A stretch of DNA of 64,000 nucleotides from Urechis unicinctus (taxonomy: Eukaryota > Annelida > Polychaeta > Xenopneusta > Urechidae): positions 46,714,327 through 46,778,326 of the forward strand of contig CM067358.1 in the NCBI GenBank assembly GCA_034190875.2, in the 5' to 3' direction. Made by a program: the position numbers and the translations under genes. Positions within the stretch are counted from its first letter, which is position 1, and every line of letters begins with the position of its first letter. The notes under the pieces were generated by a model that was not told the origin of the DNA, ran no database searches, and worked only from the letters and a program-made list of their open reading frames with translations. Of this stretch, positions 400-64,000 are shown one piece after another.

Positions 400-2426
<2,027 letters not shown>

Positions 2427-4410: not shown

Positions 4411-5900
<1,490 letters not shown>

Positions 5901-17638: not shown

Positions 17639-18161
17639 TCAGTATCTCTGGCTAATATCCAAAAGATATTTACCGTAGGTGTTTATGATCATGTAAATCA
17701 AATTGTATAGAACAAGATATACTGCATGAATGTCACGAACTTTAGCTTTGATGGTCAAACCTAGACAAGCATTGCCTCGTTCAAGCTCACTTAGCGACAC
17801 TATCTGTCCATTAACGGTTGAATCTCTTGAATCAATACCCAGATGTACGATAACATCACATAGACACGATATTACTTTATACAATTTTGACACGGAACGA
17901 TGATTTATCGTATCTATCAAGCGAAAGGCTACTGTCTTTTGATCGGGCGATATCTAGGAGCAGAAATGTATACGACGAAAATAATAACTTCATCAAAACC
18001 AATATTGGGAGCATGATAGTCTCTTTTTGTAATAATTCAGTGTAGTTACAATCGTCCGGCTGTCGGGTTAGACCTCTCAAAAGGCTAGTTGACTTTGGCG
18101 TTGAAGGCAAAAACACAACTAATATAATGGCTGCAACGGTACCGTAACCAATAGCAACCAC
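17639..18161 (-). pseudogene. Overlapping exon-like minus frames near family 3
   Basis: Two overlapping minus frames of about 94 codons (18161-17877 and 17920-17639) could be one coding track with a frameshift near 17900. The upstream part opens with a hydrophobic GTVAAIILVVFLP and contains a second signal-like run, MLPILVLMKLLFSS. The downstream part contains LTIKAKVRDI, which resembles the TIKAHIYADL of the family 3 exon at 31499-31804. The function is unknown. The hydrophobic segments suggest a membrane or secreted product if it was ever expressed. Confidence 0.3.
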
Positions 18162-18345
18162 ACCATTTTACAGAGACAGATGCACCCACCTGGGAGGACG
18201 ACAAGCTTGTTAGCCATCATCGCATCCTTACGTACATGGCTTGTCTATTGAGGCATTTCCTGTAATCCAACGCAGTGAGGCATGAGACTTCTCATATTCT
18301 GAACTGCTCTCCGCACCTTATCATCCAATATTTCTATTGGTATGT
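18120..18345. repeat. Family 3 fragment
   Basis: Plus-strand words catccttacgtacatggctt and gtctattgagg match the satellite monomer (catccttacgtacatggctt, gtctgctgagg) and the unit at 31340-31490. On the minus strand it reads VRKDAMMANKLVVLP and ends at CCCAG|GTGGGT (donor-like, 18189). The 31.4-kb copy reads VRKAVMMPNKLTFLP and ends at TATCAG|GTGAGT. An in-frame TAG lies upstream in this copy. Confidence 0.75.
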
Positions 18346-18829
18346 TTATTTATTGACAGCCGAGAGACACCCATCGTTAATATAAGAATTCCGCATCACA
18401 TTGCAATGGGCAGTAGTAATGCAAATGATGCAATATCCATTATCATGCGGTTGATATATCGCAGATGAGCCACTTATGGCTGTCACCCTTAGCATGGTGG
18501 AGTGGAAAAACGTTATTGCTCACTGAAGCAATATACTCCGGCGTTTCATTGCTATCGCATCGTACCGTGATGTTCAGCTGCTCCTCGTGGATCCCCGATG
18601 CACTCGTGGCTGTCTGGAACGAAGCATGAAGTAAATAAATATGGATTAATGACCTCTGCAAACATCACAATATAGTCCCTATCTTGACGGTCTAATGAAA
18701 TGGCTGAGAAGGATTTGGAGGTTGATATATCAATCCCTGTAATGAAACGATGAGTGTACTCAAGATAACACTACGTTAACATGTTATGATACCATCATTC
18801 ATTGGACGTTCATATTGTATCTGCTTTTC
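18346..18829. other. Intergenic, no supported gene
   Basis: A 72-codon minus frame at 18443-18661 has no paralogue or splice support. Confidence 0.4.
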
Positions 18830-19480
18830 ATATCCGAAAACCATAATCCCCATACAAATTTAAACAAACATCACATTTGCTGAAATTTTCAAATATTCCG
18901 AAATGAAATATTTGATGCACTCTGACAGATGACATACTTTTACATATTACCGACTCGTTGATCATTTTTGAGATACTTACGAATACATATACCTCAAGAT
19001 AATCCGGTCACATATTACTTGATATCAGCCTACTTGTATACAAAAGGGAACAAATATGCTCTTGTCTGATGCCTACACTTCCAAAGACATTTCATGTTTG
19101 ATGTAAGGAAATGAAGGATTCAATTATGTCGTGGCCTACTTACCCTCTTCCCATCTCCAATTCAGGTTAAATTTTACTGAGATGGCGCCAGTGACAAACA
19201 TTAAAGCATCCTGGAGCAATCCCATCACTCCTCTCTGCAAACAAGGCGCATTGAAATTCTGTGTATTCTGTGGTGCAGGGATCATGATTTGCATCCGTCA
19301 AAGAGAGGTGAATGGAATGTGAATGTTTCGAGCCTTTAACAGGAAATGCAATCCTTTCGTTTGACATCAGACAATATCCATCGAGCGTATACGGTGTCAA
19401 ACGTTAGGTTTGCTGCATTGATTTTCCTGTTGATACTTGTTTAGTCTACATCGGGTTACATGGAATATAGGACGTCTTAA
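18830..19480. repeat. Exon-cluster unit, copy 1 (19.2 kb)
   Basis: Resembles 21440-21960 in direct orientation (cacatttgctg-a-atcttcaa-at, gacagatgatat, aggaacaaata). Its exon-bearing part also matches 20890-21050. This appears to be a local three-fold duplication. Confidence 0.6.
19144..19294 (-). CDS. Putative exon ending at GTAAGT, RG-MG-LQ-A module
   Basis: The minus strand is open for 50 codons and ends at AGG followed by GTAAGTAGG (19143 down). It reads IPAPQNTQNFNAPC, then RGVMGLLQDALMFVTGAIS, then NLNWRWEE. The paralogous stretch at 20904-21050 reads KGMTGSLQEAIMFANGSIS with the same spacing. Matching positions are K/R-G-x-x-G-x-L-Q-E/D-A-hydrophobic-M-F-x-x-G-x-I-S. Keeping protein similarity while the DNA differs widely is the best coding evidence in this part of the window. 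The fold and function are not recognised. A short hydrophobic helix is possible. The 5' boundary is uncertain: acceptor-like cag triplets lie at about 19265 and 19275, and an in-frame TGA lies just upstream of the start chosen. Confidence 0.45.
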
Positions 19481-20749
19481 AATTCTGAAGCAAAATTCAC
19501 ATTAATCGAATACTGATATAACGACCAAATAATATGCTATTAAATAACACAGCAATGATGAGCAAACAAATTTGTTGTCATAGGAAATTAATTATTTTCT
19601 TAGCAACTACGTAACAGGATTATATACATGGAACAGATCCTTCGTTATCGTTAATTAATTATCATCATGTAATAAAATTAGGCATTAAAAGCTATTTCAT
19701 TTTGTTAGTGCCACTGAATTAAATCGAGCAATATAAATTTTTAAAGATACAGGCCACGTGTACCCTAAAAAATTACCATTAAGAGGAACACCTAGAAGTA
19801 GTGGAATCATTGAACAACGTCAGCAGTGTAGCTGCTTAACATAAGATACGGAATGAATTATACAAATTATCCTTTGTGTTCGTTCAGATGAATACGTTCG
19901 ATCGATTATATGGATATTTCCCATTTTCTTTGAAAGCTATTTATGCCAAGACGATCTTTTCAAGTACCATTTTGACCACGCGCAGCCGTAAAGGCTACGT
20001 ACTAAATATATTTGATGGCACACATCAGGCAACAGCTGACACATAGACTCTTTTACTTCGACGGAATACTAAAATTGTTGGGAGGGTAGGCACAAGCTGC
20101 CAGAAAGCAAACAACTATTAGCAACAGATAAACTTTAATCTTTATTTTCCTTTTAGGTATTACGAGGAATTTTAGCACACCAGCAGCAGTACATGCTTGA
20201 CATTCCAAGGCAAAGAACGATTTACATTTTTTAACCAATAGATATACCAACCACAGCAATATTCTAGAATTCCCTAGTGATAATAATTGTGCCAACATAG
20301 ATTTGGCAACTGTTCAATCACCAAACATCAGTCATGATATGCCATTATCAGCTGATATTTGCCAAATTATGCTAATAACAATAAAATAGAGTGATCGGCG
20401 TAGTGCGATGAAGGGCTATATTGCTCACATGAATACGTTATTGTTTGTGAGTCCGTGTTGGGTGTTATGCGCTACCAATAACAATTCGGTTCGCATAACG
20501 CTGGTAGACTACTTGTATCTGACGCTAGCAATGAAAAAGTGTCATTACAAAAAAGATACTTCATACAACCAACACATTGCATAATTATCAGGAATTAATT
20601 AAAGTAGATGCTTTTAATGCATGTGTCTGGGACGCATTTAATGATCCTAATGCAATACATATCTGTAGATGTATGTCAGTCTGTCTATTTGTTACCAATT
20701 AACATCAATATGGAGCGGTCTTGATATCACAAACGGGGTTCGGTAGGGG
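19481..20749. other. Intergenic, one lipoprotein-like frame unsupported
   Basis: A minus frame at 20053-20298 contains VYLLLIVVCFLAAC, signal-like, but there is no paralogue or splice site to support it. Confidence 0.4.
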
Positions 20750-30429: not shown

Positions 30430-31960
30430 TTAAATCTTCAAGCGACGTTACCAAACATCAAACATTATCAGATTAATTGAAGATATTGACACTCATTTCT
30501 TTAGTAATTATTAAAGACGACTGGTTATAAATTGTCATCAACCTTAATGTATCCGCAAATATATCGTTTAACAAAGAGCACTGTTAAGTCTGCTACCGCA
30601 TCAATAGGGAAGCTTGCAAGCTATTGCAAGGCTTGTAGTTTCATTAATGCAACAGCCGTGTTGGATTTCAGATGTTTTACTAGCTATTCGTAATCTTTAA
30701 ATGTATATTTTGAGCAAAATGTTAAGCCACATGATATTTGATAGCTGATAACAAGCGGCTTAGCTAGCACCAAGTTTACCCGTGAAAGGCGGACATTAAC
30801 GAACTTAATGACCACGTAAGTGGGAGTAATTTCACACAGAAAGTGGGTATTCATGCGACACAAAAGCATTGATATGATGCACTTCATTGTGTGTGAGGGT
30901 AATAACAGCTCCTGAAGGGAATCTAGTGAACAGACAAGATATTAGGTCCTCACGGTTCACAAGCATCAACAATCTGTTGTGGTTCAATTGTTGTCTCTCT
31001 ATAGAAATGTTTCGGTACATGACAATGCTATATTTGTTAATGCATGTTTAAGGATATCCCCGTAAAACATGATATACTCTGTCCACAGTAGTGTCAACTC
31101 ATAACGTAGTAAAAATGGAACAATATTTTCGTAACTGCTCTTCTGCAGCCCTGTGGATTCACAGGGGCCAATAATAACCTGTTAATCAGATATCAGCTAT
31201 TTATGACACCAAAGGACAATGGACAGCGTTACTTTGAATTGCTGATGTACAATAGAATCATTGCAATTAATGCCGTAAAAAACAAAAATGTACGCTTCAA
31301 AATTAGAAGGATTTTAGAACGGCTGCAATAGTGACAGATGTACTCACCTGATACTCTGTGTAGATTGGAAGGAAGGTGAGCTTGTTCGGCATCATCACTG
31401 CCTTACGGACACGGCATTTTCCGCTGAGGCTTTGACTTTCCGCAATGCACTATGCACCTCTTTATCCAATACTGCATAGATTGCTATGAGTCGCGGCGTT
31501 AAATAGCAGCGTAAAAGGACCGTTTATCATTATATATTACAGCAACCCAGTTAGTGTACATGGGAACATGTTGCAAGTGGCGTAGATCTGCGTATATGTG
31601 TGCTTTTATGGTTTGATATAGATTCCCCGCTGAGGAACGTTGAAGAGCACCGATTGCTATGATCAAGAGACATTTATTTGTCAATGTGTTCCAATAGCAA
31701 ACAACCGGAGTCATTTCACGCCAGCTTATACTACCGAAAGTGTTATTCTTAATCCCAACTTTAATTATATGACTTAAATTAACAACCATATCGACAGACC
31801 ACACAATCTTAATCTGTCACACAATGGGCGCTGTGCAAATGCACGTGAAAATGTAATGAAGCCTTAACTCTTCTGAACTTTCATGATAAAGACACCGGCG
31901 CCAGCTATTCTCGCTGGATGGAACAGGTGTGTGAGCATACAGCTGATCAATACGGGCTGG
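30430..31960. repeat. Family 3 single-copy unit, relative of the satellite monomer
   Basis: Collinear in direct orientation with the satellite and its left flank. Matches include accaaacatcaaacatta, attaatgcaacagccgtgtt, cttagctagcac, gacacaaaagcat, cacaagcatcaacaatctgt, tacggacacggc, gctgaggctttgactttc and gacagaccacacaatctt. It lacks the roughly 190-bp block (gtgggcatatgattagtac and following) that is present in every array monomer, so it approximates the pre-amplification state. Confidence 0.85.
31499..31812 (-). CDS. Putative intact exon of family 3 (TIKAHIYADL module)
   Basis: After an acceptor-like cccattgtgtgacag (minus, near 31815) the minus strand is open for about 104 codons up to a TAA at 31499. 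It reads KIVWSVDMVVNLSH, then REMTPVVCYWN, NKCLLIIAIGALQ and TIKAHIYADLRHLQHV. The satellite monomers read KIVWSVHMSSHIRN and, further on, TIKAHICTDLRRLQHV in homologous positions, but with stops between. Here the whole track is open, suggesting this copy is nearer to the ancestral coding state. Beyond the TAA another frame continues with AVLDKEVHSALRKV up to a GTGAGT donor at 31347, so a frameshift near 31500 may have cut the exon. The product is unknown. Two moderately hydrophobic runs are visible. Confidence 0.4.
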
Positions 31961-33896: not shown

Positions 33897-34672
<776 letters not shown>

Positions 34673-41949: not shown

Positions 41950-42026
41950 ACATATATATATATATATAGATTATATATATGATGCCAAATTTACATAATT
42001 ATATATATACATGTATATGTATATAA

Positions 42027-42092
<66 letters not shown>

Positions 42093-42109
42093 ATATGTAT
42101 ATATGTATA

Positions 42110-42152
<43 letters not shown>

Positions 42153-42183
42153 TAAATATATATATATATATATATATTTGAAC

Positions 42184-42214
<31 letters not shown>

Positions 42215-42232
42215 TAATATATATATATATAT
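41950..42232. repeat. (TA)n microsatellite with GT and CTTAA interruptions
   Basis: Several near-pure TA runs are separated by short unique words, ending at tatcagtattg. Confidence 0.96.
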
Positions 42233-44206: not shown

Positions 44207-44486
44207 TTAATCGTGTTATTCTTTGGCTGGCATCACATCCAAATCCTTTGAAGTTCAGCGATTTAACGCCGATACTAACGCAATTATTACTCATTAGAAT
44301 TGTCTAAAAAGATGAAATTATCTTCGTAACGATCACTGTTTGTCAGTTAATTGTGTTATTCTTTGGCTGGCATCACATCCAAATCCTTTGAAGTTCAGCG
44401 ATTTAACGCCGATACTAACGCAATTATTACTCATTAGAATTGTCTCAAAAGATGAAATTATCTTCGTAACGATCACTGTTTGTCAG
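44207..44486. repeat. Perfect-register tandem duplication, 2 x 140 bp
   Basis: Units 44207-44346 and 44347-44486 differ at only two positions that I can see (tcgtg/ttgtg and ctaaaaag/ctcaaaag). The duplication is therefore recent compared with the dispersed families. Confidence 0.95.
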
Positions 44487-45574: not shown

Positions 45575-49689
<4,115 letters not shown>

Positions 49690-50250
49690 TTATTAGTTTA
49701 ATGAATGGATGCAGTTCTCGTTAGCAAACATCAAACATCATTAAATAAATTAAGCATATAGACACACATCTCTTTCGTGGTTATCAAAAGCCGCTAGTTT
49801 TAATCTGTGGGTAAGGAATAAATATATATTTGAGAATGTAAACATGCTGCAGCGATGGTTAATAGCTTCGGTACTTCTTCTTTTTGACGAATCGCTCTAA
49901 TTCGTTCATGTAAAGTTACGTCAAATAAATGCCAATGTACAGCATTGGTGCCAAGTAATCACGCACTTTGTATTCATAAATCTATTTTCTAACCAAGAGC
50001 AATGTTAACTCTGTAACCGCTTCACTGGGTCAGGAAAATTGTCTTGTATTCTAATTAATGCAACAACCGTGTTAAGTTTCATATGTTACTCATGGTCTTT
50101 AAAGATATATATTGTGAGCCAAACATTAAGACACATGATACTTGATAGCTGCATTTGCTTCTTATATATGTGTTGGCATAATAATAACCTTTTATGTTTC
50201 ATATTCGCTCGTGTAATGCTCCTAAGACCCAGTGCATATGGCGCAACGGG
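49690..50250. repeat. Left flank of the satellite, family 3 homology
   Basis: About 49720-50150 aligns with 30450-30745 (gcaaacatcaaacatca, aaccaagagcaatgttaactctg, attaatgcaacaaccgtgtta, cacatgatacttgatagct). After this the sequence leaves homology (50150-50250) and enters the first monomer at gttggaaagg. The array therefore arose within an existing family 3 copy. Confidence 0.75.
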
Positions 50251-50262
50251 TTGGAAAGGTGT

Positions 50263-51567
50263 GGGGGGGGGGTGTGGCTTGGTATGTGGGCATATGATTA
50301 GTACGGGCGGTGGGTGTGTTGAGTATAAAGGTGTTAGTATGGAATGTTGAACCAATGTGAAGACAATAGAAGGCAACAGTTAAACCTGTGTAGTTTGATC
50401 TATGCATGTGGCAATGAATGCAGCGATAGTTTGATAAGACTTAGCTAGCACTTAGTTGACCAGTGAATGGCGGGCATTTGCGAACTTAATGTTCATGTGT
50501 ATTGGAATAATTTCACCCGGCTCAGGTTTTTATGAGACACAAAAGCATAAAGATGATGTACTGCATCACGGATAAATGTTAAAACAGCCAGTGAATAGGC
50601 AGGAGGGGAGGTACTGAGGGCTCACAAGTATCAACACTCTATTGTGATTTATTTGCTGTCTCGCTTAGGAATTATTCTCTTACACAATGACAGATTTATT
50701 CATACACGTTTAAGTAAAATATTTCAGGGAAATCCGAAAGGTTTTGTAATTGGGGAATAAATAGTGACATGCATATGTATGATAAGAACAATAACTGCAT
50801 GTTTGATAATAATACTGTGTCGCAACAATCGCCAGAGTCCCATATTGCTAGTTGGCTTATGACACTGAAGTCAGAAATTCAACTGATAATATAGCTGCAA
50901 TAATACAGTGACTATCACACCATGGAAAAGAGACACCTGGGACTCTGTTTAGATTGGGAGGTAGGTACGCTTGTTAGGTTTCATCACATCCTTACGTACA
51001 TGGCTTGTCTGCTGAGGCTGTTACTTTCTGCAACGCAATTAGGCATGCCAATACACATGTCCTGAAATGTACTATCTACCTCTTCATTCTATATTGCAGA
51101 GAGGTTAAATTATTGCATTTAAAATGACCGTTTTTCATTAAATATTAATGTCACCAGTTAGTGTGCTAGGTGACATGTTGCAAGCGGCGTAGATCTGTGC
51201 ATATGTGTGCTTTAATAGTGTAAATTATAAATGCAATTTTATTCCAACGACCCCAGGATGATTCTCTGAGGACAGAATTGGCACGTGCTGCCGATCCATA
51301 CATATAAAATAAACATGACACTATAACGTCAGCAGGTCGGTAGATGCATACACAGAAGTCGTGTCGACCGAGCTACATTAAAGTTGCAGATCATACGACC
51401 CGCTAGAGAGCAACGATAGCAACGATCATGCGACAGTTGTCTATGTGCTTTAATAGCCAAAAACTGGAGTCCTTTCACGACAGCTAAAACTACCGTATGC
51501 TGAATAAAAAAGTTGATTATATTACGAATATGAGAAGACATATGGACAGACCACACAATCTTGGAAA
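50263..51567. repeat. Monomer 1, type A (array edge)
   Basis: Starts with a 10-G run. It carries an edge-specific loss of atttgttcag near 50835 and a B-like attattctctta variant at 50669, so it differs from the two other A monomers. Confidence 0.9.
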
Positions 51568-52884
51568 GGGGGGGATGGCTTGGTATGTGGGCATATGATT
51601 AGTACGGGGGGTGGGTGTATTGAGTATAAATGTGTTAGTATGGAATCTTGAACCAATGTGAAGACAATAGAAGGCAACAGTTATGCCTGTGTAGTTTGAT
51701 CTATACATGTGGTAATGAATGCAGCGAAAGTTTGATAATATAAGACTTAGCTTGCACTTAGTTGACAAGTGAATGGCGGGCATTTGCGAACTTAATGTCC
51801 ATGTGTATTGGAATAATTTCACCCGGCTCAGGTTTTTATGAGACACATAAGCATAAAGATGATGTACTGCATCACGGATAAAGGTTAAAACAGCCAGTGA
51901 ATAGGCAGGAGGGGAGGTACTGAGGGCTCACAAGTATCAACACTCTATTGTGATTTATTTGCTGTCTCGCTTAGGAATTATTCTCTTACACAATGACAGA
52001 TTTATTCATACACGTTTAAGTAAAATATTTCAGGGAAATCCGAAAGGTTTTGTAATTGGGGAATAAATAGTGACATGCATATGTATGATAAGAACAATAA
52101 CTGCATGTTTGATAATAATACTGTGTTGCAACAATCGCCAGATTTGTTCAGAGTCCCATATTGCTAGTTGGCTTATGACACTGAAGTCAGAAATTCAACT
52201 GATAATATAGCTGCAATAATACAGTGACTATCACACCAAGGCAAAGAGACACCTGGGACTCTGTTTAGATTGGGAGGTAGGTACGCTTGTTAGGTATCAT
52301 CACATCCTTACGTACATGGCTTGTCTGCTGAGGCTGTTACTTTCTGCAACGCAATTAGGCATGCCAATACACATGTCCTGAAATGTACTATCTACCTCTT
52401 CATTCTATATTGCAGAGAGGTTAAATTATTGCATATAAAATGACCGTTTTTCATTAAATATTAATGTCACCAGTTAGTGTGCTAGGTGACATGTTGCAAG
52501 CGGCGTAGATCTGTGCATATGTGTGCTTTAATAGTGTAAGTTATAAATGCAATTTTATTCCAACGACCCCAGGATGATTCTCTGAGGACAGAATAGGCAC
52601 GTGCTGCCGATCCATACATATAAAATAAACATGACACTATAACGTCAGCAGGTCGGTAGATGCATACACAGAAGTCGTGTCGACCGAGCTTACATTAAAG
52701 TTGCAGATCATACGACCCGCTAGAGAGCAACGATCGCAACGATCATGCGACAGTTGTCTATGTGCTTTAATAGCCAAAAACTGGAGTCCTTTCACGACAG
52801 CTAAAACTACCGTATGCTGAATAAAAAAGTTGATTATATTACGAATATGAGAAGACATATGGACAGACCACACAATCTTGGAAA
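51568..52884. repeat. Monomer 2, type B
   Basis: Starts with 7 G then ATGG, as do the other B monomers. Carries gacaagtgaatgg and acacataagc, tgttgcaac and caaggcaaag. A one-base insertion (gagcttacatt) near 52690 shifts the minus frame. Confidence 0.9.
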
Positions 52885-54205
52885 GGGGGGGGGGGGGGCT
52901 TGGTATGTGGGCATATGATTAGTACGGGGGGTGGGTGTATTTGAGTATAAATGTGTTAGTATGGAATCTTGAACCAATGTGAAGACAATAGAAGGCAACA
53001 GTTATGCCTGTGTAGTTTGATCTATACATGTGGTAATGAATGCAGCGAAAGTTTGATAATATAAGACTTAGCTTGCACTTAGTTGACCAGTGAATGGCGG
53101 GCATTTGCGAACTTAATGTCCATGTGTATTGGAATAATTTCACCCGGCTCAGGTTTTTATGAGACACAAAAGCATAAAGATGATGTACTGCATCACGGAT
53201 AAAGGTTAAAACAGCCAGTGAATAGGCAGGAGGGGAGGTACTGAGGGCTCACAAGTATCAACACTCTATTGTGATTTATTTGCTGTCTCGCTTAGGAATT
53301 GTTCTCGTACACAATGACAGATTTATTCATACACGTTTAAGTAAAATATTTCAGGGAAATCCGAAAGGTTTTGTAATTGGGGAATAAATAGTGACATGCA
53401 TATGTATGATAAGAACAATAACTGCATGTTTGATAATAATACTGTGTCGCAACAATCGCCAGATTTGTTCAGAGTCCCATATTGCTAGTTGGCTTATAAC
53501 ACTGAAGTCACAAATTCAACTGATAATATAGCTGCAATAATACAGTGACTATCACACTATGGCAAAGAGACACCTGGGACTCTGTTTAGATTGGGAGATA
53601 GGTACGCTTGTTAGGTATCATCACATCCTTACGTACATGGCTTGTCTGCTGAGGCTGTTGCTTTCTGCAACGCAATTAGGCATGCCAATACACATGTCCT
53701 GAAATGTACTATCTACCTCTTCATTCTATATTGCAGAGAGGTTAAATTATTGCATATAAAATGACCGTTTTTCATTAAATATTAATGTTGCCCAGTTAGT
53801 GTGCTAGGTGACATGTTGCAAGCGGCGTAGATCTGTGCATATGTGTGCTTTTATAGTATAAGTTATAAATGCAATTTTATTCCAACGATCCCAGAATGAT
53901 TCTCTGAGGACAGAATAGGCACGTGCTGCCGATCCATACATATAAAATAAAACATGACACTATAACGTCAGCAGGTCGGTAGATGCATACACAGAAGTCG
54001 TGTCGACCGAGCTACATTAAAGTTGCAGATCATACGACCCGCTAGAGAGCAACGATCGCAACGATCATGCGACAGTTGTCTATGTGCTTCAATAGCCAAA
54101 AACTGGAGTCCTTTCACGACAGCTAAAACTACCGTATGCTGAATAAAAAAGTTGATTATATTACGAATATGAGAAGACATATGGACAGACCACACATCTT
54201 GGAAA
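52885..54205. repeat. Monomer 3, type C with A-like left half
   Basis: Starts with 14 G. The left half has atacatgtggtaatg, cttgcac and gaccag as in monomers 4 and 7. The right half has the C markers. This is a chimeric monomer. Confidence 0.9.
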
Positions 54206-55526
54206 GGGGGGGGGGTGGCTTGGTATGTGGGCATATGATTAGTACGGGGGGTGGGTGTATTGAGTATAAATGTGTTAGTATGGAATCTTGAACCAATGTG
54301 AAGACAATAGAAGGCAACAGTTATGCCTGTGTAGTTTGATCTATACATGTGGTAATGAATGCAGCGAAAGTTTGATAATATAAGACTTAGCTTGCACTTA
54401 GTTGACCAGTGAATGGCGGGCATTTGCGAACTTAATGTCCATGTGTATTGGAATAATTTCACCCGGCTCAGGTTTTTATGAGACACAAAAGCATAAAGAT
54501 GATGTACTGCATCACGGATAAAGGTTAAAACAGCCAGTGAATAGGCAGGAGGGGAGGTACTGAGGGCTCACAAGTATCAACACTCTATTGTGATTTATTT
54601 GCTGTCTCGCTTAGGAATTGTTCTCGTACACAATGACAGATTTATTCATACACGTTTAAGTAAAATATTTCAGGGAAATCCGAAAGGTTTTGTAATTGGG
54701 GAATAAATAGTGACATGCATATGTATGATAAGAACAATAACTGCATGTTTGATAATAATACTGTGTCGCAACAATCGCCAGATTTGTTCAGAGTCCCATA
54801 TTGCTAGTTGGCTTATGACACTGAAGTCAGAAATTCAACTGATAATATAGCTGCAATAATACAGTGACTATCACACCATGGAAAAGAGACACCTGGGACT
54901 CTGTTTAGATTGGGAGGTAGGTACGCTTGTTAGGTTTCATCACATCCTTACGTACATGGCTTGTCTGCTGAGGCTGTTACTTTCTGCAACGCAATTAGGC
55001 ATGCCAATACACATGTCCTGAAATGTACTATCTACCTCTTCATTCTATATTGCAGAGAGGTTAAATTATTGCATTTAAAATGACCGTTTTTCATTAAATA
55101 TTAATGTCACCAGTTAGTGTGCTAGGTGACATGTTGCAAGCGGCGTAGATCTGTGCATATGTGTGCTTTAATAGTGTAAATTATAAATGCAATTTTTTTA
55201 TTCCAACGACCCCAGGATGATTCTCTGAGGACAGAATTGGCACGTGCTGCCGATCCATACATATAAAATAAACATGACACTATAACGTCAGCAGGTCGGT
55301 AGATGCATACACAGAAGTCGTGTCGACCGAGCTACATTAAAGTTGCAGATCATACGACCCGCTAGAGAGCAACGATAGCAACGATCATGCGACAGTTGTC
55401 TATGTGCTTTAATAGCCAAAAACTGGAGTCCTTTCACGACAGCTAAAACTACCGTATGCTGAATAAAAAAGTTGATTATATTACGAATATGAGAAGACAT
55501 ATGGACAGACCACACAATCTTGGAAA
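54206..55526. repeat. Monomer 4, type A
   Basis: Starts with 10 G after cacacatctt (one A lost). Carries catggaaaagag, gaattggcac and cgatagcaac. Confidence 0.9.
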
Positions 55527-56842
55527 GGGGGGGATGGCTTGGTATGTGGGCATATGATTAGTACGGGGGGTGGGTGTATTGAGTATAAATGTGTTAGTAT
55601 GGAATCTTGAACCAATGTGAAGACAATAGAAGGCAACAGTTATGCCTGTGTAGTTTGATCTATACATGTGGTAATGAATGCAGCGAAAGTTTGATAATAT
55701 AAGACTTAGTTAGCACTTAGTTGACAAGTGAATGGCGGGCATTTGCGAACTTAATGTCCATGTGTATTGGAATAATTTCACCCGGCTCAGGTTTTTATGA
55801 GACACATAAGCATAAAGATGATGTACTGCATCACGGATAAAGGTTAAAACAGCCAGTGAATAGGCAGGAGGGGAGGTACTGAGGGCTCACAAGTATCAAC
55901 ACTCTATTGTGATTTATTTGCTGTCTCGCTTAGGAATTATTCTCTTACACAATGACAGATTTATTCATACACGTTTAAGTAAAATATTTCAGGGAAATCC
56001 GAAAGGTTTTGTAATTGGGGAATAAATAGTGACATGCATATGTATGATAAGAACAATAACTGCATGTTTGATAATAATACTGTGTTGCAACAATCGCCAG
56101 ATTTGTTCAGAGTCCCATATTGCTAGTTGGCTTATGACACTGAAGTCAGAAATTCAACTGATAATATAGCTGCAATAATACAGTGACTATCACACCAAGG
56201 CAAAGAGACACCTGGGACTCTGTTTAGATTGGGAGGTAGGTACGCTTGTTAGGTATCATCACATCCTTACGTACATGGCTTGTCTGCTGAGGCTGTTACT
56301 TTCTGCAACGCAATTAGGCATGCCAATACACATGTCCTGAAATGTACTATCTACCTCTTCATTCTATATTGCAGAGAGGTTAAATTATTGCATATAAAAT
56401 GACCGTTTTTCATTAAATATTAATGTCACCAGTTAGTGTGCTAGGTGACATGTTGCAAGCGGCGTAGATCTGTGCATATGTGTGCTTTAATAGTGTAAGT
56501 TATAAATGCAATTTTATTCCAACGACCCCAGGATGATTCTCTGAGGACAGAATAGGCACGTGCTGCCGATCCATACATATAAAATAAACATGACACTATA
56601 ACGTCAGCAGGTCGGTAGATGCATACACAGAAGTCGTGTCGACCGAGCTACATTAAAGTTGCAGATCATACGACCCGCTAGAGAGCAACGATCGCAACGA
56701 TCATGCGACAGTTGTCTATGTGCTTTAATAGCCAAAAACTGGAGTCCTTTCACGACAGCTAAAACTACCGTATGCTGAATAAAAAAGTTGATTATATTAC
56801 GAATATGAGAAGACATATGGACAGACCACACAATCTTGGAAA
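55527..56842. repeat. Monomer 5, type B
   Basis: Starts with 7 G then ATGG. Carries gttagcac, gacaag, acacataagc and tgttgcaac. Confidence 0.9.
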
Positions 56843-58155
56843 GGGGGGGGGGGTGGCTTGGTATGTGGGCATATGATTAGTACGGGGGGTGGGTGTATTG
56901 AGTATAAATGTGCAAGTATGGAATCTTGAACCAATGTGAAGACAATAGAAGGCAACAGTTATGCCTGTGTAGTTTGATCTATGCATGTGGCAATGAATGC
57001 AGTGATAGTTTGATAAGACTTAGCTAGCACTTAGTTGACCAGTGAATGGCGGGCATTTGCGAACTTAATGTTCATGTGTATTGGAATAATTTCACCCGGC
57101 TCAGGTTTTTATGAGACACAAAAGCATAAAGATGATGTACTGCATCACGGATAAAGGTTAAAACAGCCAGTAAATAGGCAGGAGGGGAGGTACTGAGGGC
57201 TCACAAGTATCAACACTCTATTGTGATTTATTTGCTGTCTCGCTTAGGAATTGTTCTCGTACACAATGACAGATTTATTCATACACGTTTAAGTAAAATA
57301 TTTCAGGGAAATCCGAAAGGTTTTGTAATTGGGGAATAAATAGTGACATGCATATGTATGATAAGAACAATAACTGCATGTTTGATAATAATACTGTGTC
57401 GCAACAATCGCCAGATTTGTTCAGAGTCCCATATTGCTAGTTGGCTTATAACACTGAAGTCACAAATTCAACTGATAATATAGCTGCAATAATACAGTGA
57501 CTATCACACTATGGCAAAGAGACACCTGGGACTCTGTTTAGATTGGGAGATAGGTACGCTTGTTAGGTATCATCACATCCTTACGTACATGGCTTGTCTG
57601 CTGAGGCTGTTGCTTTCTGCAACGCAATTAGGCATGCCAATACACATGTCCTGAAATGTACTATCTACCTCTTCATTCTATATTGCAGAGAGGTTAAATT
57701 ATTGCATATAAAATGACCGTTTTTCATTAAATATTAATGTCACCAGTTAGTGTGCTAGGTGACATGTTGCAAGCGGCGTAGATCTGTGCATATGTGTGCT
57801 TTTATAGTATAAGTTATAAATGCAATTTTATTCCAACGATCCCAGAATGATTCTCTGAGGACAGAATAGGCACGTGCTGCCGATCCATACATATAAAATA
57901 AACATGACACTATAACGTCAGCAGGTCGGTAGATGCATACACAGAAGTCGTGTCGACCGAGCTACATTAAAGTTGCAGATCATACGACCCGCTAGAGAGC
58001 AACGATCGCAACGATCATGCGACAGTTGTCTATGTGCTTTAATAGCCAAAAACTGGAGTCCTTTCACGACAGCTAAAACTACCGTATGCTGAATAAAAAA
58101 GTTGATTATATTACGAATATGAGAAGACATATGGACAGACCACACAATTTTGGAA
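56843..58155. repeat. Monomer 6, type C
   Basis: Starts with 11 G. The left half has atgcatgtggcaatg, cagtgatag and gtaaataggc. The right half has taacactgaagtcacaaa. It keeps aatgtcaccag where the other C monomers have aatgttgcccag. Confidence 0.9.
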
Positions 58156-59477
58156 GGGGGGGGGGGGTGGCTTGGTATGTGGGCATATGATTAGTACGGG
58201 GGGTGGGTGTATTGAGTATAAATGTGTTAGTATGGAATCTTGAACCAATGTGAAGACAATAGAAGGCAACAGTTATGCCTGTGTAGTTTGATCTATACAT
58301 GTGGTAATGAATGCAGCGAAAGTTTGATAATATAAGACTTAGCTTGCACTTAGTTGACCAGTGAATGGCGGGCATTTGCGAACTTAATGTCCATGTGTAT
58401 TGGAATAATTTCACCCGGCTCAGGTTTTTATGAGACACAAAAGCATAAAGATGATGTACTGCATCACGGATAAAGGTTAAAACAGCCAGTGAATAGGCAG
58501 GAGGGGAGGGGTACTGAGGGCTCACAAGTATCAACACTCTATTGTGATTTATTTGCTGTCTCGCTTAGGAATTGTTCTCGTACACAATGACAGATTTATT
58601 CATACACGTTTAAGTAAAATATTTCAGGGAAATCCGAAAGGTTTTGTAATTGGGGAATAAATAGTGACATGCATATGTATGATAAGAACAATAACTGCAT
58701 GTTTGATAATAATACTGTGTCGCAACAATCGCCAGATTTGTTCAGAGTCCCATATTGCTAGTTGGCTTATGACACTGAAGTCAGAAATTCAACTGATAAT
58801 ATAGCTGCAATAATACAGTGACTATCACACCATGGAAAAGAGACACCTGGGACTCTGTTTAGATTGGGAGGTAGGTACGCTTGTTAGGTTTCATCACATC
58901 CTTACGTACATGGCTTGTCTGCTGAGGCTGTTACTTTCTGCAACGCAATTAGGCATGCCAATACACATGTCCTGAAATGTACTATCTACCTCTTCATTCT
59001 ATATTGCAGAGAGGTTAAATTATTGCATTTAAAATGACCGTTTTTCATTAAATATTAATGTCACCAGTTAGTGTGCTAGGTGACATGTTGCAAGCGGCGT
59101 AGATCTGTGCATATGTGTGCTTTAATAGTGTAAATTATAAATGCAATTTTATTCCAACGACCCCAGGATGATTCTCTGAGGACAGAATTGGCACGTGCTG
59201 CCGATCCATACATATAAAATAAACATGACACTATAACGTCAGCAGGTCGGTAGATGCATACACAGAAGTCGTGTCGACCGAGCTACATTAAAGTTGCAGA
59301 TCATACGACCCGCTAGAGAGCAACGATAGCAACGATCATGCGACAGTTGTCTATGTGCTTTAATAGCCAAAAACTGGAGTCCTTTCACGACAGCTAAAAC
59401 TACCGTATGCTGAATAAAAAAGTTGATTATATTACGAATATGAGAAGACATATGGACAGACCACACAATCTTGGAAA
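58156..59477. repeat. Monomer 7, type A
   Basis: Starts with 12 G. Near identical to monomer 4, with a private gaggggaggggtac insertion at about 58502. Confidence 0.9.
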
Positions 59478-60793
59478 GGGGGGGATGGCTTGGTATGTGG
59501 GCATATGATTAGTACGGGGGGTGGGTGTATTGAGTATAAATGTGTTAGTATGGAATCTTGAACCAATGTGAAGACAATAGAAGGCAACAGTTATGCCTGT
59601 GTAGTTTGATCTATACATGTGGTAATGAATGCAGCGAAAGTTTGATAATATAAGACTTAGTTAGCACTTAGTTGACAAGTGAATGGCGGGCATTTGCGAA
59701 CTTAATGTCCATGTGTATTGGAATAATTTCACCCGGCTCAGGTTTTTATGAGACACATAAGCATAAAGATGATGTACTGCATCACGGATAAAGGTTAAAA
59801 CAGCCAGTGAATAGGCAGGAGGGGAGGTACTGAGGGCTCACAAGTATCAACACTCTATTGTGATTTATTTGCTGTCTCGCTTAGGAATTATTCTCTTACA
59901 CAATGACAGATTTATTCATACACGTTTAAGTAAAATATTTCAGGGAAATCCGAAAGGTTTTGTAATTGGGGAATAAATAGTGACATGCATATGTATGATA
60001 AGAACAATAACTGCATGTTTGATAATAATACTGTGTTGCAACAATCGCCAGATTTGTTCAGAGTCCCATATTGCTAGTTGGCTTATGACACTGAAGTCAG
60101 AAATTCAACTGATAATATAGCTGCAATAATACAGTGACTATCACACCAAGGCAAAGAGACACCTGGGACTCTGTTTAGATTGGGAGGTAGGTACGCTTGT
60201 TAGGTATCATCACATCCTTACGTACATGGCTTGTCTGCTGAGGCTGTTACTTTCTGCAACGCAATTAGGCATGCCAATACACATGTCCTGAAATGTACTA
60301 TCTACCTCTTCATTCTATATTGCAGAGAGGTTAAATTATTGCATATAAAATGACCGTTTTTCATTAAATATTAATGTCACCAGTTAGTGTGCTAGGTGAC
60401 ATGTTGCAAGCGGCGTAGATCTGTGCATATGTGTGCTTTAATAGTGTAAGTTATAAATGCAATTTTATTCCAACGACCCCAGGATGATTCTCTGAGGACA
60501 GAATAGGCACGTGCTGCCGATCCATACATATAAAATAAACATGACACTATAACGTCAGCAGGTCGGTAGATGCATACACAGAAGTCGTGTCGACCGAGCT
60601 ACATTAAAGTTGCAGATCATACGACCCGCTAGAGAGCAACGATCGCAACGATCATGCGACAGTTGTCTATGTGCTTTAATAGCCAAAAACTGGAGTCCTT
60701 TCACGACAGCTAAAACTACCGTATGCTGAATAAAAAAGTTGATTATATTACGAATATGAGAAGACATATGGACAGACCACACAATCTTGGAAA
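59478..60793. repeat. Monomer 8, type B
   Basis: Starts with 7 G then ATGG. Near identical to monomer 5. Confidence 0.9.
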
Positions 60794-62114
60794 GGGGGGG
60801 GGGGGGGGTGGCTTGGTATGTGGGCATATGATTAGTACGGGGGGTGGGTGTGTATTGAGTATAAATGTGCAAGTATGGAATCTTGAACCAATGTGAAGAC
60901 AATAGAAGGCAACAGTTATGCCTGTGTAGTTTGATCTATGCATGTGGCAATGAATGCAGTGATAGTTTGATAAGACTTAGCTAGCACTTAGTTGACCAGT
61001 GAATGGCGGGCATTTGCGAACTTAATGTTCATGTGTATTGGAATAATTTCACCCGGCTCAGGTTTTTATGAGACACAAAAGCATAAAGATGATGTACTGC
61101 ATCACGGATAAAGGTTAAAACAGCCAGTAAATAGGCAGGAGGGGAGGTACTGAGGGCTCACAAGTATCAACACTCTATTGTGATTTATTTGCTGTCTCGC
61201 TTAGGAATTGTTCTCGTACACAATGACAGATTTATTCATACACGTTTAAGTAAAATATTTCAGGGAAATCCGAAAGGTTTTGTAATTGGGGAATAAATAG
61301 TGACATGCATATGTATGATAAGAACAATAACTGCATGTTTGATAATAATACTGTGTCGCAACAATCGCCAGATTTGTTCAGAGTCCCATATTGCTAGTTG
61401 GCTTATAACACTGAAGTCACAAATTCAACTGATAATATAGCTGCAATAATACAGTGACTATCACACTATGGCAAAGAGACACCTGGGACTCTGTTTAGAT
61501 TGGGAGGTAGGTACGCTTGTTAGGTATCATCACATCCTTACGTACATGGCTTGTCTGCTGAGGCTGTTGCTTTCTGCAACGCAATTAGGCATGCCAATAC
61601 ACATGTCCTGAAATGTACTATCTACCTCTTCATTCTATATTGCAGAGAGGTTAAATTATTGCATATAAAATGACCGTTTTTCATTAAATATTAATGTTGC
61701 CCAGTTAGTGTGCTAGGTGACATGTTGCAAGCGGCGTAGATCTGTGCATATGTGTGCTTTTATAGTATAAGTTATAAATGCAATTTTATTCCAACGATCC
61801 CAGAATGATTCTCTGAGGACAGAATAGGCACGTGCTGCCGATCCATACATATAAAATAAACATGACACTATAACGTCAGCAGGTCGGTAGATGCATACAC
61901 AGAAGTCGTGTCGACCGAGCTACATTAAAGTTGCAGATCATACGACCCGCTAGAGAGCAACGATCGCAACGATCATGCGACAGTTGTCTATGTGCTTCAA
62001 TAGCCAAAAACTGGAGTCCTTTCACGACAGCTAAAACTACCGTATACTGAATAAAACAGTTGATTATATTACGAATATGAGAAGACATATGGACAGACCA
62101 CACAATCTTGGAAA
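60794..62114. repeat. Monomer 9, type C
   Basis: Starts with 15 G. Near identical to monomer 6 in its left half. Has aatgttgcccag and a private ggtgtgtattg. Confidence 0.9.
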
Positions 62115-63435
62115 GGGGGGGGGGGGGGGTGGCTTGGTATGTGGGCATATGATTAGTACGGGGGGTGGGTGTATTGAGTATAAATGTGTTAGTATGGAAT
62201 CTTGAACCAATGTGAAGACAATAGAAGGCAACAGTTATGCCTGTGTAGTTTGATCTATGCATGTGGCAATGAATGCAGTGATAGTTTGATAAAAGACTTA
62301 GCTAGCACTTAGTTGACCAGTGAATGGCGGGCATTTGCGAACTTAATGTTCATGTGTATTGGAATAATTTCACCCGGCTCAGGTTTTTATGAGACACAAA
62401 AGCATAAAGATGATGTACTGCATCACGGATAAAGGTTAAAACAGCCAGTAAATAGGCAGGAGGGGAGGTACTGAGGGCTCACAAGTATCAACACTCTATT
62501 GTGATTTATTTGCTGTCTCGCTTAGGAATTGTTCTCGTACACAATGACAGATTTATTCATACACGTTTAAGTAAAATATTTCAGGGAAATCCGAAAGGTT
62601 TTGTAATTGGGGAATAAATAGTGACATGCATATGTATGATAAGAACAATAACTGCATGTTTGATAATAATACTGTGTCGCAACAATCGCCAGATTTGTTC
62701 AGAGTCCCATATTGCTAGTTGGCTTATAACACTGAAGTCACAAATCAACTGATAATATAGCTGCAATAATACAGTGACTATCACACTATGGCAAAGAGAC
62801 ACCTGGGACTCTGTTTAGATTGGGAGGATAGGTACGCTTGTTAGGTATCATCACATCCTTACGTACATGGCTTGTCTGCTGAGGCTGTTGCTTTCTGCAA
62901 CGCAATTAGGCATGCCAATACACATGTCCTGAAATGTACTATCTACCTCTTCATTCTATATTGCAGAGAGGTTAAATTATTGCATATAAAATGACCGTTT
63001 TTCATTAAATATTAATGTTGCCCAGTTAGTGTGCTAGGTGACATGTTGCAAGCGGCGTAGATCTGTGCATATGTGTGCTTTTATAGTATAAGTTATAAAT
63101 GCAATTTTATTCCAACGATCCCAGAATGATTCTCTGAGGACAGAATAGGCACGTGCTGCCGATCCATACATATAAAATAAACATGACACTATAACGTCAG
63201 CAGGTCGGTAGATGCATACACAGAAGTCGTGTCGACCGAGCTACATTAAAGTTGCAGATCATACGACCCGCTAGAGAGCAACGATCGCAACGATCATGCG
63301 ACAGTTGTCTATGTGCTTCAATAGCCAAAAACTGGAGTCCTTTCACGACAGCTAAAACTACCGTATGCTGAATAAAAAAGTTGATTATATTACGAATATG
63401 AGAAGACATATGGACAGACCACACAATCTTGGAAA
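62115..63435. repeat. Monomer 10, type C (extra copy)
   Basis: Starts with 15 G. C markers repeat instead of the expected A. Private changes are ataaaagac near 62290 and cacaaatcaac near 62741. This breaks the A-B-C register. Confidence 0.9.
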
Positions 63436-63715
63436 GGGGGGGGGTGGCTTGGTATGTGGGCATATGATTAGTACGGGGGGTGGGTGTATTGAGTATAAAT
63501 GTGTTAGTATGGAATCTTGAACCAATGTGAAGACAATAGAAGGCAACAGTTATGCCTGTGTAGTTTGATCTATACATGTGGTAATGAATGCAGCGAAAGT
63601 TTGATAATATAAGACTTAGCTTGCACTTAGTTGACCAGTGAATGGCGGGCATTTGCGAACTTAATGTCCATGTGTATTGGAATAATTTCACCCGGCTCAG
63701 GTTTTTATGAGACAC
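63197..63715 (-). pseudogene. Longest minus-strand frame inside a satellite monomer (172 codons)
   Basis: An open frame crosses the junction G-run only where that run happens to be in frame, here with 9 G and in 53968-54486 with 10 G plus one lost A. In the other monomers the same text is split into pieces of about 63 to 143 codons. The right-hand part (WSVHMSSHIRNIINFFIQ and following) aligns with the family 3 exon at 31499-31812. Past the end, the TIKAHICTDLRRLQHV relic is interrupted by stops. I regard it as a decayed exon plus a chance extension through the proline-coding C-run, not a functional gene. Confidence 0.6.
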
Positions 63716-64000
63716 AAAAGCATAAAGATGATGTACTGCATCACGGATAAAGGTTAAAACAGCCAGTGAATAGGCAGGAGGGGAGGTACTGAGGGCTCAC
63801 AAGTATCAACACTCTATTGTGATTTATTTGCTGTCTCGCTTAGGAATTGTTCTCGTACACAATGACAGATTTATTCATACACGTTTAAGTAAAATATTTC
63901 AGGGAAATCCGAAAGGTTTTGTAATTGGGGAATAAATAGTGACATGCATATGTATGATAAGAACAATAACTGCATGTTTGATAATAATACTGTGTCGCAA
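63436..64000. repeat. Monomer 11, partial, probably type A
   Basis: Starts with 9 G. The left half has atacatgtggtaatg, cttgcac, gaccag and attgttctcgta, matching monomers 4 and 7. The diagnostic A site lies beyond the window. Confidence 0.75.

What the first reader, a model, noticed from the sequence alone, without database searches (positions are those of the whole stretch)
50252..64000. Three-monomer higher-order repeat with period about 3955 bp
Type-specific variants recur every third monomer (A at 50921, 54876, 58831; B at 52236, 56195, 60146; C at 53558, 57510, 61466), while adjacent monomers differ. This is the nested pattern known from centromeric alpha satellite. The 1.32-kb monomer is unusually long for such an array. 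It may mark a centromeric, pericentromeric or other heterochromatic block.
Basis: seen in the sequence. Interest (0 to 1): 0.85.

Follow-up and report, generated by a model that had tools for sequence, protein, structure and literature searches.

The report
Small tandem array with higher-order repeats
A 1.3-kb piece of apparently non-coding DNA has been copied in place 18 times, with copy types recurring in sets of three and then sets of two; this is an ordinary way repeats grow, and nothing found points to a centromere.

Summary
The array is 18 monomers, 23.7 kb, ending at C17:46788295. Only m1-m9 are trimeric. m10 is an extra C-like copy, m11-m16 alternate as a two-monomer repeat, and m17-m18 are divergent edge copies. 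Both flanks align with the flanks of single-copy relatives nearby, which shows the state before amplification; the new joint shares 2 bp (TT) beside a run of G. Monomers are mosaics (212 of 741 site pairs fail the four-gamete test; mutation-only simulations reach at most 9.3% of pairs). All listed genome-wide matches lie on C17, 46.1-47.0 Mb. No coding or known-RNA signal was found in what was tested. Two of three usable control segments also sit in local duplication families, so the setting is not special. Verdict: a locus-specific, macrosatellite-like array shaped by unequal exchange and gene conversion. Centromeric function is not supported, though chromatin could not be tested.

The parts
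50251..64000 (+). Part of the tandem array inside the window (10.4 of 18 monomers); whole array = C17:46764577-46788295
50251..51579 (+). Monomer m1, type A, left edge; begins at the left side of the founding joint (TTGGAAAGG, then a G run); lacks 10 bp that the other 17 monomers have; C-like at alignment columns 130-300
51580..52899 (+). Monomer m2, type B
52900..54219 (+). Monomer m3, mosaic: A-like in the first 300 alignment columns, C-like after column 620, little signal between
54220..55538 (+). Monomer m4, type A
55539..56857 (+). Monomer m5, type B
56858..58171 (+). Monomer m6, type C
58172..59489 (+). Monomer m7, type A (0 substitutions from m4)
59490..60812 (+). Monomer m8, type B
60813..62133 (+). 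Monomer m9, type C; last of the trimeric block
62134..63448 (+). Monomer m10, C-like, breaks the trimer phase
63449..64000 (+). Start of m11 (ends outside the window), first of the dimeric block m11-m16; no difference from m4 (type A) in the first 620 alignment columns
49593..50272 (+). Left flank, homologous (67-78%) to the left flanks of single-copy relatives at C17:46124241, 46193531, 46668136, 46708174 and 46855297
30746..31810 (+). Decayed single-copy relative of the monomer (68-72%, three pieces)
   Evidence: two of the pieces also
18191..18332 (+). 142-bp fragment related to the monomer (74%) near the start of a local duplication block

Best explanation
A locus-specific, macrosatellite-like tandem array. 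Shown by sequence: a 1.32-kb segment, present elsewhere as single decayed copies within local duplication blocks on C17, is tandem at one place through a joint of CAATCTT to GGAAAGG with 2 bp shared (TT) beside a G run; 18 copies lie between flanks that match the single-copy state; the copies are mosaics of one another and form a 3-mer block and a 2-mer block. Inferred: the first duplication came from a break or stalled fork near the G run, repaired with microhomology; later unequal crossing-over and gene conversion enlarged and homogenised the array. A multi-monomer unit copied as one explains the 3-mer and 2-mer blocks, and a single-monomer exchange explains the phase slip at m10. No selected function is needed.
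For: Array limits and 18 monomers. Lag-3 and lag-2 periodicity and tree. Both flanks homologous to the flanks of single-copy relatives, and the joint read directly. 212 of 741 pairs of 39 informative sites fail the four-gamete test, at least 12 exchange intervals; 200 mutation-only simulations on the monomer tree: mean 3.0%, maximum 9.3% of pairs. Edge monomers m17 and m18 keep an outgroup base (G, alignment column 715) that m1-m16 lack. 28 of 28 matches listed for a relative used as query lie on C17 46.125-47.008 Mb, 18 of them the array (25 of 25 first-look candidates scored).
Against: The founding mechanism is read from one joint, and 2 shared bases can occur by chance. The dimer test rests on six monomers (4409 of 100000). 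The C group has weak support (0.743) and m12 does not group with m14 and m16; m3-m6 differ by 19, more than some neighbours. Genome searches score best candidates only and skip common words: the first one missed the array itself. The simulation uses a tree built from recombining data. Function was not tested.
Confidence: 0.85

Rival explanations
1. The array, or the 0.9-Mb duplication cluster around it, is the centromere or pericentromere of chromosome C17, with a chromosome-specific sequence.
For: Nested repeat; homogenised core flanked by decayed relatives; 71% of 177.7 kb of non-array sequence around it is covered by local similarity of 200 bp or more, 55% at 1000 bp or more; of 30 ORFs tested only one had a Pfam match above cut-off, a MULE-type transposase.
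Against: 23.7 kb only. No match on another contig among those listed in four searches. The flanking relatives are single copies within duplication blocks, not satellite. Controls at C17:20.0 Mb and C8:20.0 Mb also lie in local duplication families, so that context is not diagnostic.
Confidence: 0.04
2. The array is transcribed or acts as a chromatin element, like DXZ4 or NBL2, and is kept for that.
For: Strand-biased composition: G over C skew 0.149 in m5 against 0.036 and 0.015 in 5-kb flanks. A 142-bp stretch of the monomer recurs alone at three places, though these lie in mutually duplicated blocks and may be one event.
Against: No Rfam match in the window or in 15 of the fetched 10-kb pieces. 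Relatives are decayed and fragmentary. The skew may partly reflect the G runs. Constraint within the monomer was not measured.
Confidence: 0.06
3. Assembly artefact: collapsed, expanded or mis-joined repeat.
For: The contig is scaffolded (one fetched piece has a 100-N run, the usual sign of a gap), the region is highly duplicated, and near-identical monomers are hard to assemble.
Against: No N inside the array; it is bounded by flanks in ancestral order and has structured variation (3-mer, then 2-mer) that chance mis-assembly would hardly give. Copy number may still be off; no reads were available.
Confidence: 0.05
4. An amplified protein-coding or repeated-exon unit.
For: 172-aa ORFs at 53968 and 63197 on the minus strand, 199 codons stop to stop; shorter minus-strand frames of 126-152 codons at five other joints.
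Against: The 199-codon frame occurs at 2 of 17 monomer joints and crosses the variable G run; no Pfam match. A synonymous-excess scan of the local duplicates (array masked) gave 12 segments at p<0.002, reciprocal pairs counted twice, of about 3800 tested, against 7.6 expected; best 2e-4.
Confidence: 0.01

Closest known systems
Human LTR (MaLR) megasatellite arrays with 6-mer HORs (Warburton et al. 2008, PMC2588610; abstract, section 8 and passages read)
   Same: Kilobase monomers, arrays of 14-80 kb, HORs with missing-monomer phase slips ascribed to unequal crossing-over, embedded in segmental duplications
   Different: Those are built of retrotransposon LTRs and lie on several chromosomes; here matches are on one chromosome, no transposon was identified in the monomer, and the HORs are 3-mer and 2-mer
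NBPF 3-mer HORs / Olduvai triplets (PMC10475015; passages seen)
   Same: Three kilobase-scale monomers (1.6 kb) per HOR; two-monomer variant HOR copies also occur
   Different: NBPF monomers are part of protein-coding genes; no coding signal here
Macrosatellites such as NBL2 (1.4 kb), D4Z4 and DXZ4 (PMC8122249; passage seen)
   Same: Kilobase monomers in tandem
   Different: No function, methylation or copy-number variation known or tested here
Primate alpha-satellite HOR arrays (PMC2729386 abstract; PMC4053949 and PMC2588610 passages seen)
   Same: Nested periodicity, homogenised core, more divergent edges
   Different: 171-bp monomer, arrays up to several Mb at all human centromeres; neither size nor spread is matched here. 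CENP-A occupancy (recalled as their hallmark) was not testable

Membership tests
Higher-order repeat array | Copies n apart are more alike than neighbours | tested here: met
   m1-m9 lag 3 5.7 vs lag 1 20.2, 119/100000 orders; m11-m16 lag 2 5.75 vs lag 1 21.2, 4409/100000
Higher-order repeat array | Monomer types form clades | tested here: met
   A 0.993, B 0.988, D (m11, m13, m15) 0.941; weaker: C with m10 0.743; m14 and m16 split from the rest at 0.909 but without m12
Macrosatellite / locus-specific large tandem repeat | Kilobase monomers in tandem at one or few loci | tested here: met
   18 x 1.32 kb at one place; search scores best candidates only
Macrosatellite / locus-specific large tandem repeat | Copy number varies between individuals | not testable with these tools
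   One assembly only
Centromeric satellite | Large (hundreds of kb to Mb) array | tested here: not met
   23.7 kb
Centromeric satellite | Related arrays on most chromosomes (usual, not universal) | tested here: not met
   All listed matches on C17; search scores best candidates only
Centromeric satellite | CENP-A occupancy | not testable with these tools
   No chromatin data
NBPF-type repeated coding unit | Monomer codes for a protein domain | tested here: not met
   No Pfam match for the longest array frame; that frame at 2 of 17 joints
Transposon-derived satellite (LTR array type) | Monomer is a recognisable transposon | tested here: inconclusive
   Listed relatives only on C17, unlike a typical mobile family, but no transposon library was available

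The most novel reading that the evidence does not exclude
The array is the young core of a chromosome-specific centromere or neocentromere seeded inside a non-coding duplication cluster, with the surrounding single copies as its ancestral state.
Probability: 0.04. Interest if true: 0.75.

Novelty: new member of a known kind. Interest (0 to 1): 0.25.

Why it matters
As a case study it is tidy: the ancestral single-copy state, the founding joint, a trimeric block, a dimeric block and divergent edges all sit in or beside 24 kb, so steps in the birth of a higher-order repeat can be read directly. It does not change what is known about how such arrays form.

Tried and rejected
Coding reading: ORF lists and Pfam on 30 ORFs (29 outside the array, one inside). 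One search lists 131 complex ORFs of 85 codons or more outside the array, most of which were not tested. One above-cutoff match (MULE, L014); FLYWCH in the same ORF lies just under its cut-off; a Nepo_coat match at E 0.0045 under its cut-off is taken as chance. A first synonymous-excess scan was swamped by AT repeats and redone with a complexity filter; the number tested was counted. Known RNA: none. tRNA: none. Species: a marker repeat recalled from abalone gave 0 matches; the mollusc haemocyanin domain gave none, but that search rang in no control genome and says nothing; the organism stays unidentified. The centromere reading was weakened by the controls. G-quadruplex motifs: only 2 in the array on the plus strand and 4 in the rest, so only G runs are claimed. 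Papers: seven searches; titles not named in this report were seen as listings only.

Full report
What is there. The window is G000:C17:46714327-46778326 of a 1.19-Gb genome in 926 contigs; C17 is 71.66 Mb long. No tRNA or Rfam match was found in the window. Two ORFs reach 150 aa under the bacterial start rule; both are the same minus-strand frame in the array. From window 50251 a 1.32-kb unit is repeated head to tail. Anchors give 11 starts in the window, spaced 1301-1323 bp. With fetched neighbouring DNA the array is 18 monomers, C17:46764577-46788295.

Higher-order structure. In m1-m9 every third monomer is alike: mean 5.7 substitutions at lag 3, 20.2 at lag 1, 22.0 at lag 2; 119 of 100000 random orders of the nine do as well. 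The weakest pair is m3-m6, 19 substitutions against 17-29 for neighbours. m10 is C-like and breaks the phase; m11-m16 alternate with period two (lag 2 5.75, lag 1 21.2; 4409 of 100000 orders, a test with little power for six monomers); m17 and m18 are 16-28 and 18-37 substitutions from the others. Over all 18, neighbours are not closer than chance (14196 of 20000 orders reach the observed lag-1 mean). The tree supports A 0.993, B 0.988 and D (m11, m13, m15) 0.941; C with m10 0.743; m14 and m16 split off at 0.909, without m12.

Recombination among monomers. m3 is A-like in its first 300 alignment columns and C-like after 620; m1 is C-like at 130-300 and A-like after 620; m11 does not differ from m4 over the first 620 columns and then departs. 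Of 741 pairs of 39 informative sites, 212 (28.6%) show all four combinations, needing at least 12 exchange intervals. In 200 simulations of mutation alone on the same tree the mean was 3.0% and the maximum 9.3%. Those simulations use a tree made from recombining data, so they are a rough control.

Origin. The last 680 bp of the left flank and the first 1.2 kb of the right flank align to the flanks of single-copy relatives of the monomer (67-78% and 70-87% identity). At the left side the sequence runs GGG-TT-GGAAAGG into a G run, and at the right side CAATC-TT-AATCTG. Inside the array the joint is CAATC-TT-GGAAAGGGG. So the unit became tandem by joining these points, which share TT. The G run is 7-15 long before m1-m16; the joint before m17 has lost it. 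The five single-copy relatives aligned at this end also have G runs, two at the point itself and three about 40 bp further in. That the G run caused the break is inference.

Where relatives lie. With a monomer as query 17 matches were listed, all on C17 at 46.12-47.01 Mb, but the array itself was missed (10 of 11 candidates scored). With a relative as query 28 of 28 matches were on C17, 18 of them the array and one the query itself (25 of 25 scored). A piece at window 17900-20400 gave 30 matches (27 of 27 scored) and the right flank gave 23 (9 of 9), again all on C17 in the same stretch, the queries' own places included. In the sequence held, 71% of 177.7 kb of non-array DNA in the 212-kb region around the array is covered by similarity of 200 bp or more to other held pieces, and 55% at 1000 bp or more. 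Less than a third of the 0.9 Mb was held.

Controls for the setting. Four 3-kb segments at round coordinates were fetched; one was nearly all N and was dropped. C17:20.0 Mb has local copies at 95-96% and 73-75% within about 80 kb, besides a dispersed AT-rich stretch (40 of 10093 candidates scored). C8:20.0 Mb has 11 of 11 matches local, itself included, up to 95% (4 of 4 scored). C17:60.0 Mb belongs to a dispersed family, with relatives some 190 kb away at up to 85% (26 of 48 scored, list cut). So local non-coding duplication is not special to the array's region. With the array's small size this is the main evidence against reading the region as a centromere.

No sign of genes in what was tested. 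Pfam on 30 ORFs found one MULE-type transposase (596 codons, L014:2762-4549, minus) and nothing else above cut-off; most of the 131 ORFs were not tested. Rfam found nothing in 15 of the fetched 10-kb pieces. A scan of local duplicates for excess synonymous change gave 12 of about 3800 segments at p<0.002, reciprocal pairs counted twice, near the 7.6 expected. Short exons could be missed.

Compared with what is known. HOR structure is widespread: 76 of 171 species with Sanger data in PMC4053949 (passages seen). The nearest precedents are the human LTR arrays, HORs of 3.5-kb monomers with phase slips inside segmental duplications (PMC2588610, section 8 read), and NBPF 3-mers (PMC10475015, passages seen). 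Smith's model that unselected DNA becomes repetitive by unequal crossing-over is taken from PMC8122249 (passage seen). Conclusion: a new member of a known kind, of modest interest.

Noticed in passing
L039 (C17:20000001-20003000), L042 (C8:20000001-20003000), and the array region C17:46.1-47.0 Mb: Local, chromosome-confined families of apparently non-coding duplicates occur at two of three usable control places as well as here; local duplication may be common throughout this genome.
   Followed up: partly
L014:2762-4549 minus (C17:46828762-46830549): 596-codon open frame with a MULE transposase domain (E 4.4e-07) and a FLYWCH zinc finger match just under its cut-off, 40 kb right of the array.
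   Followed up: no
L024, L025, L026 (C17:46.12-46.20 Mb) against C17:46.66-46.86 Mb: Three 10-kb pieces of an 80-kb stretch match, in the same order, a 197-kb stretch that contains the array (82-97% identity); a duplication or a retained second haplotype, not resolved.
   Followed up: partly
window 44207-44486: A 140-bp unit present twice in tandem, 98% alike.
   Followed up: no
window 444-972, 5393-5899, 33898-34655, 41952-42232: Long AT dinucleotide tracts of 280-760 bp.
   Followed up: no
L040 (C17:60000001-60003000), positions 2479-2997: Control segment belongs to a dispersed family with a tandemly repeated part of about 0.4-0.5 kb on several contigs (for example C15:30.496 Mb).
   Followed up: no
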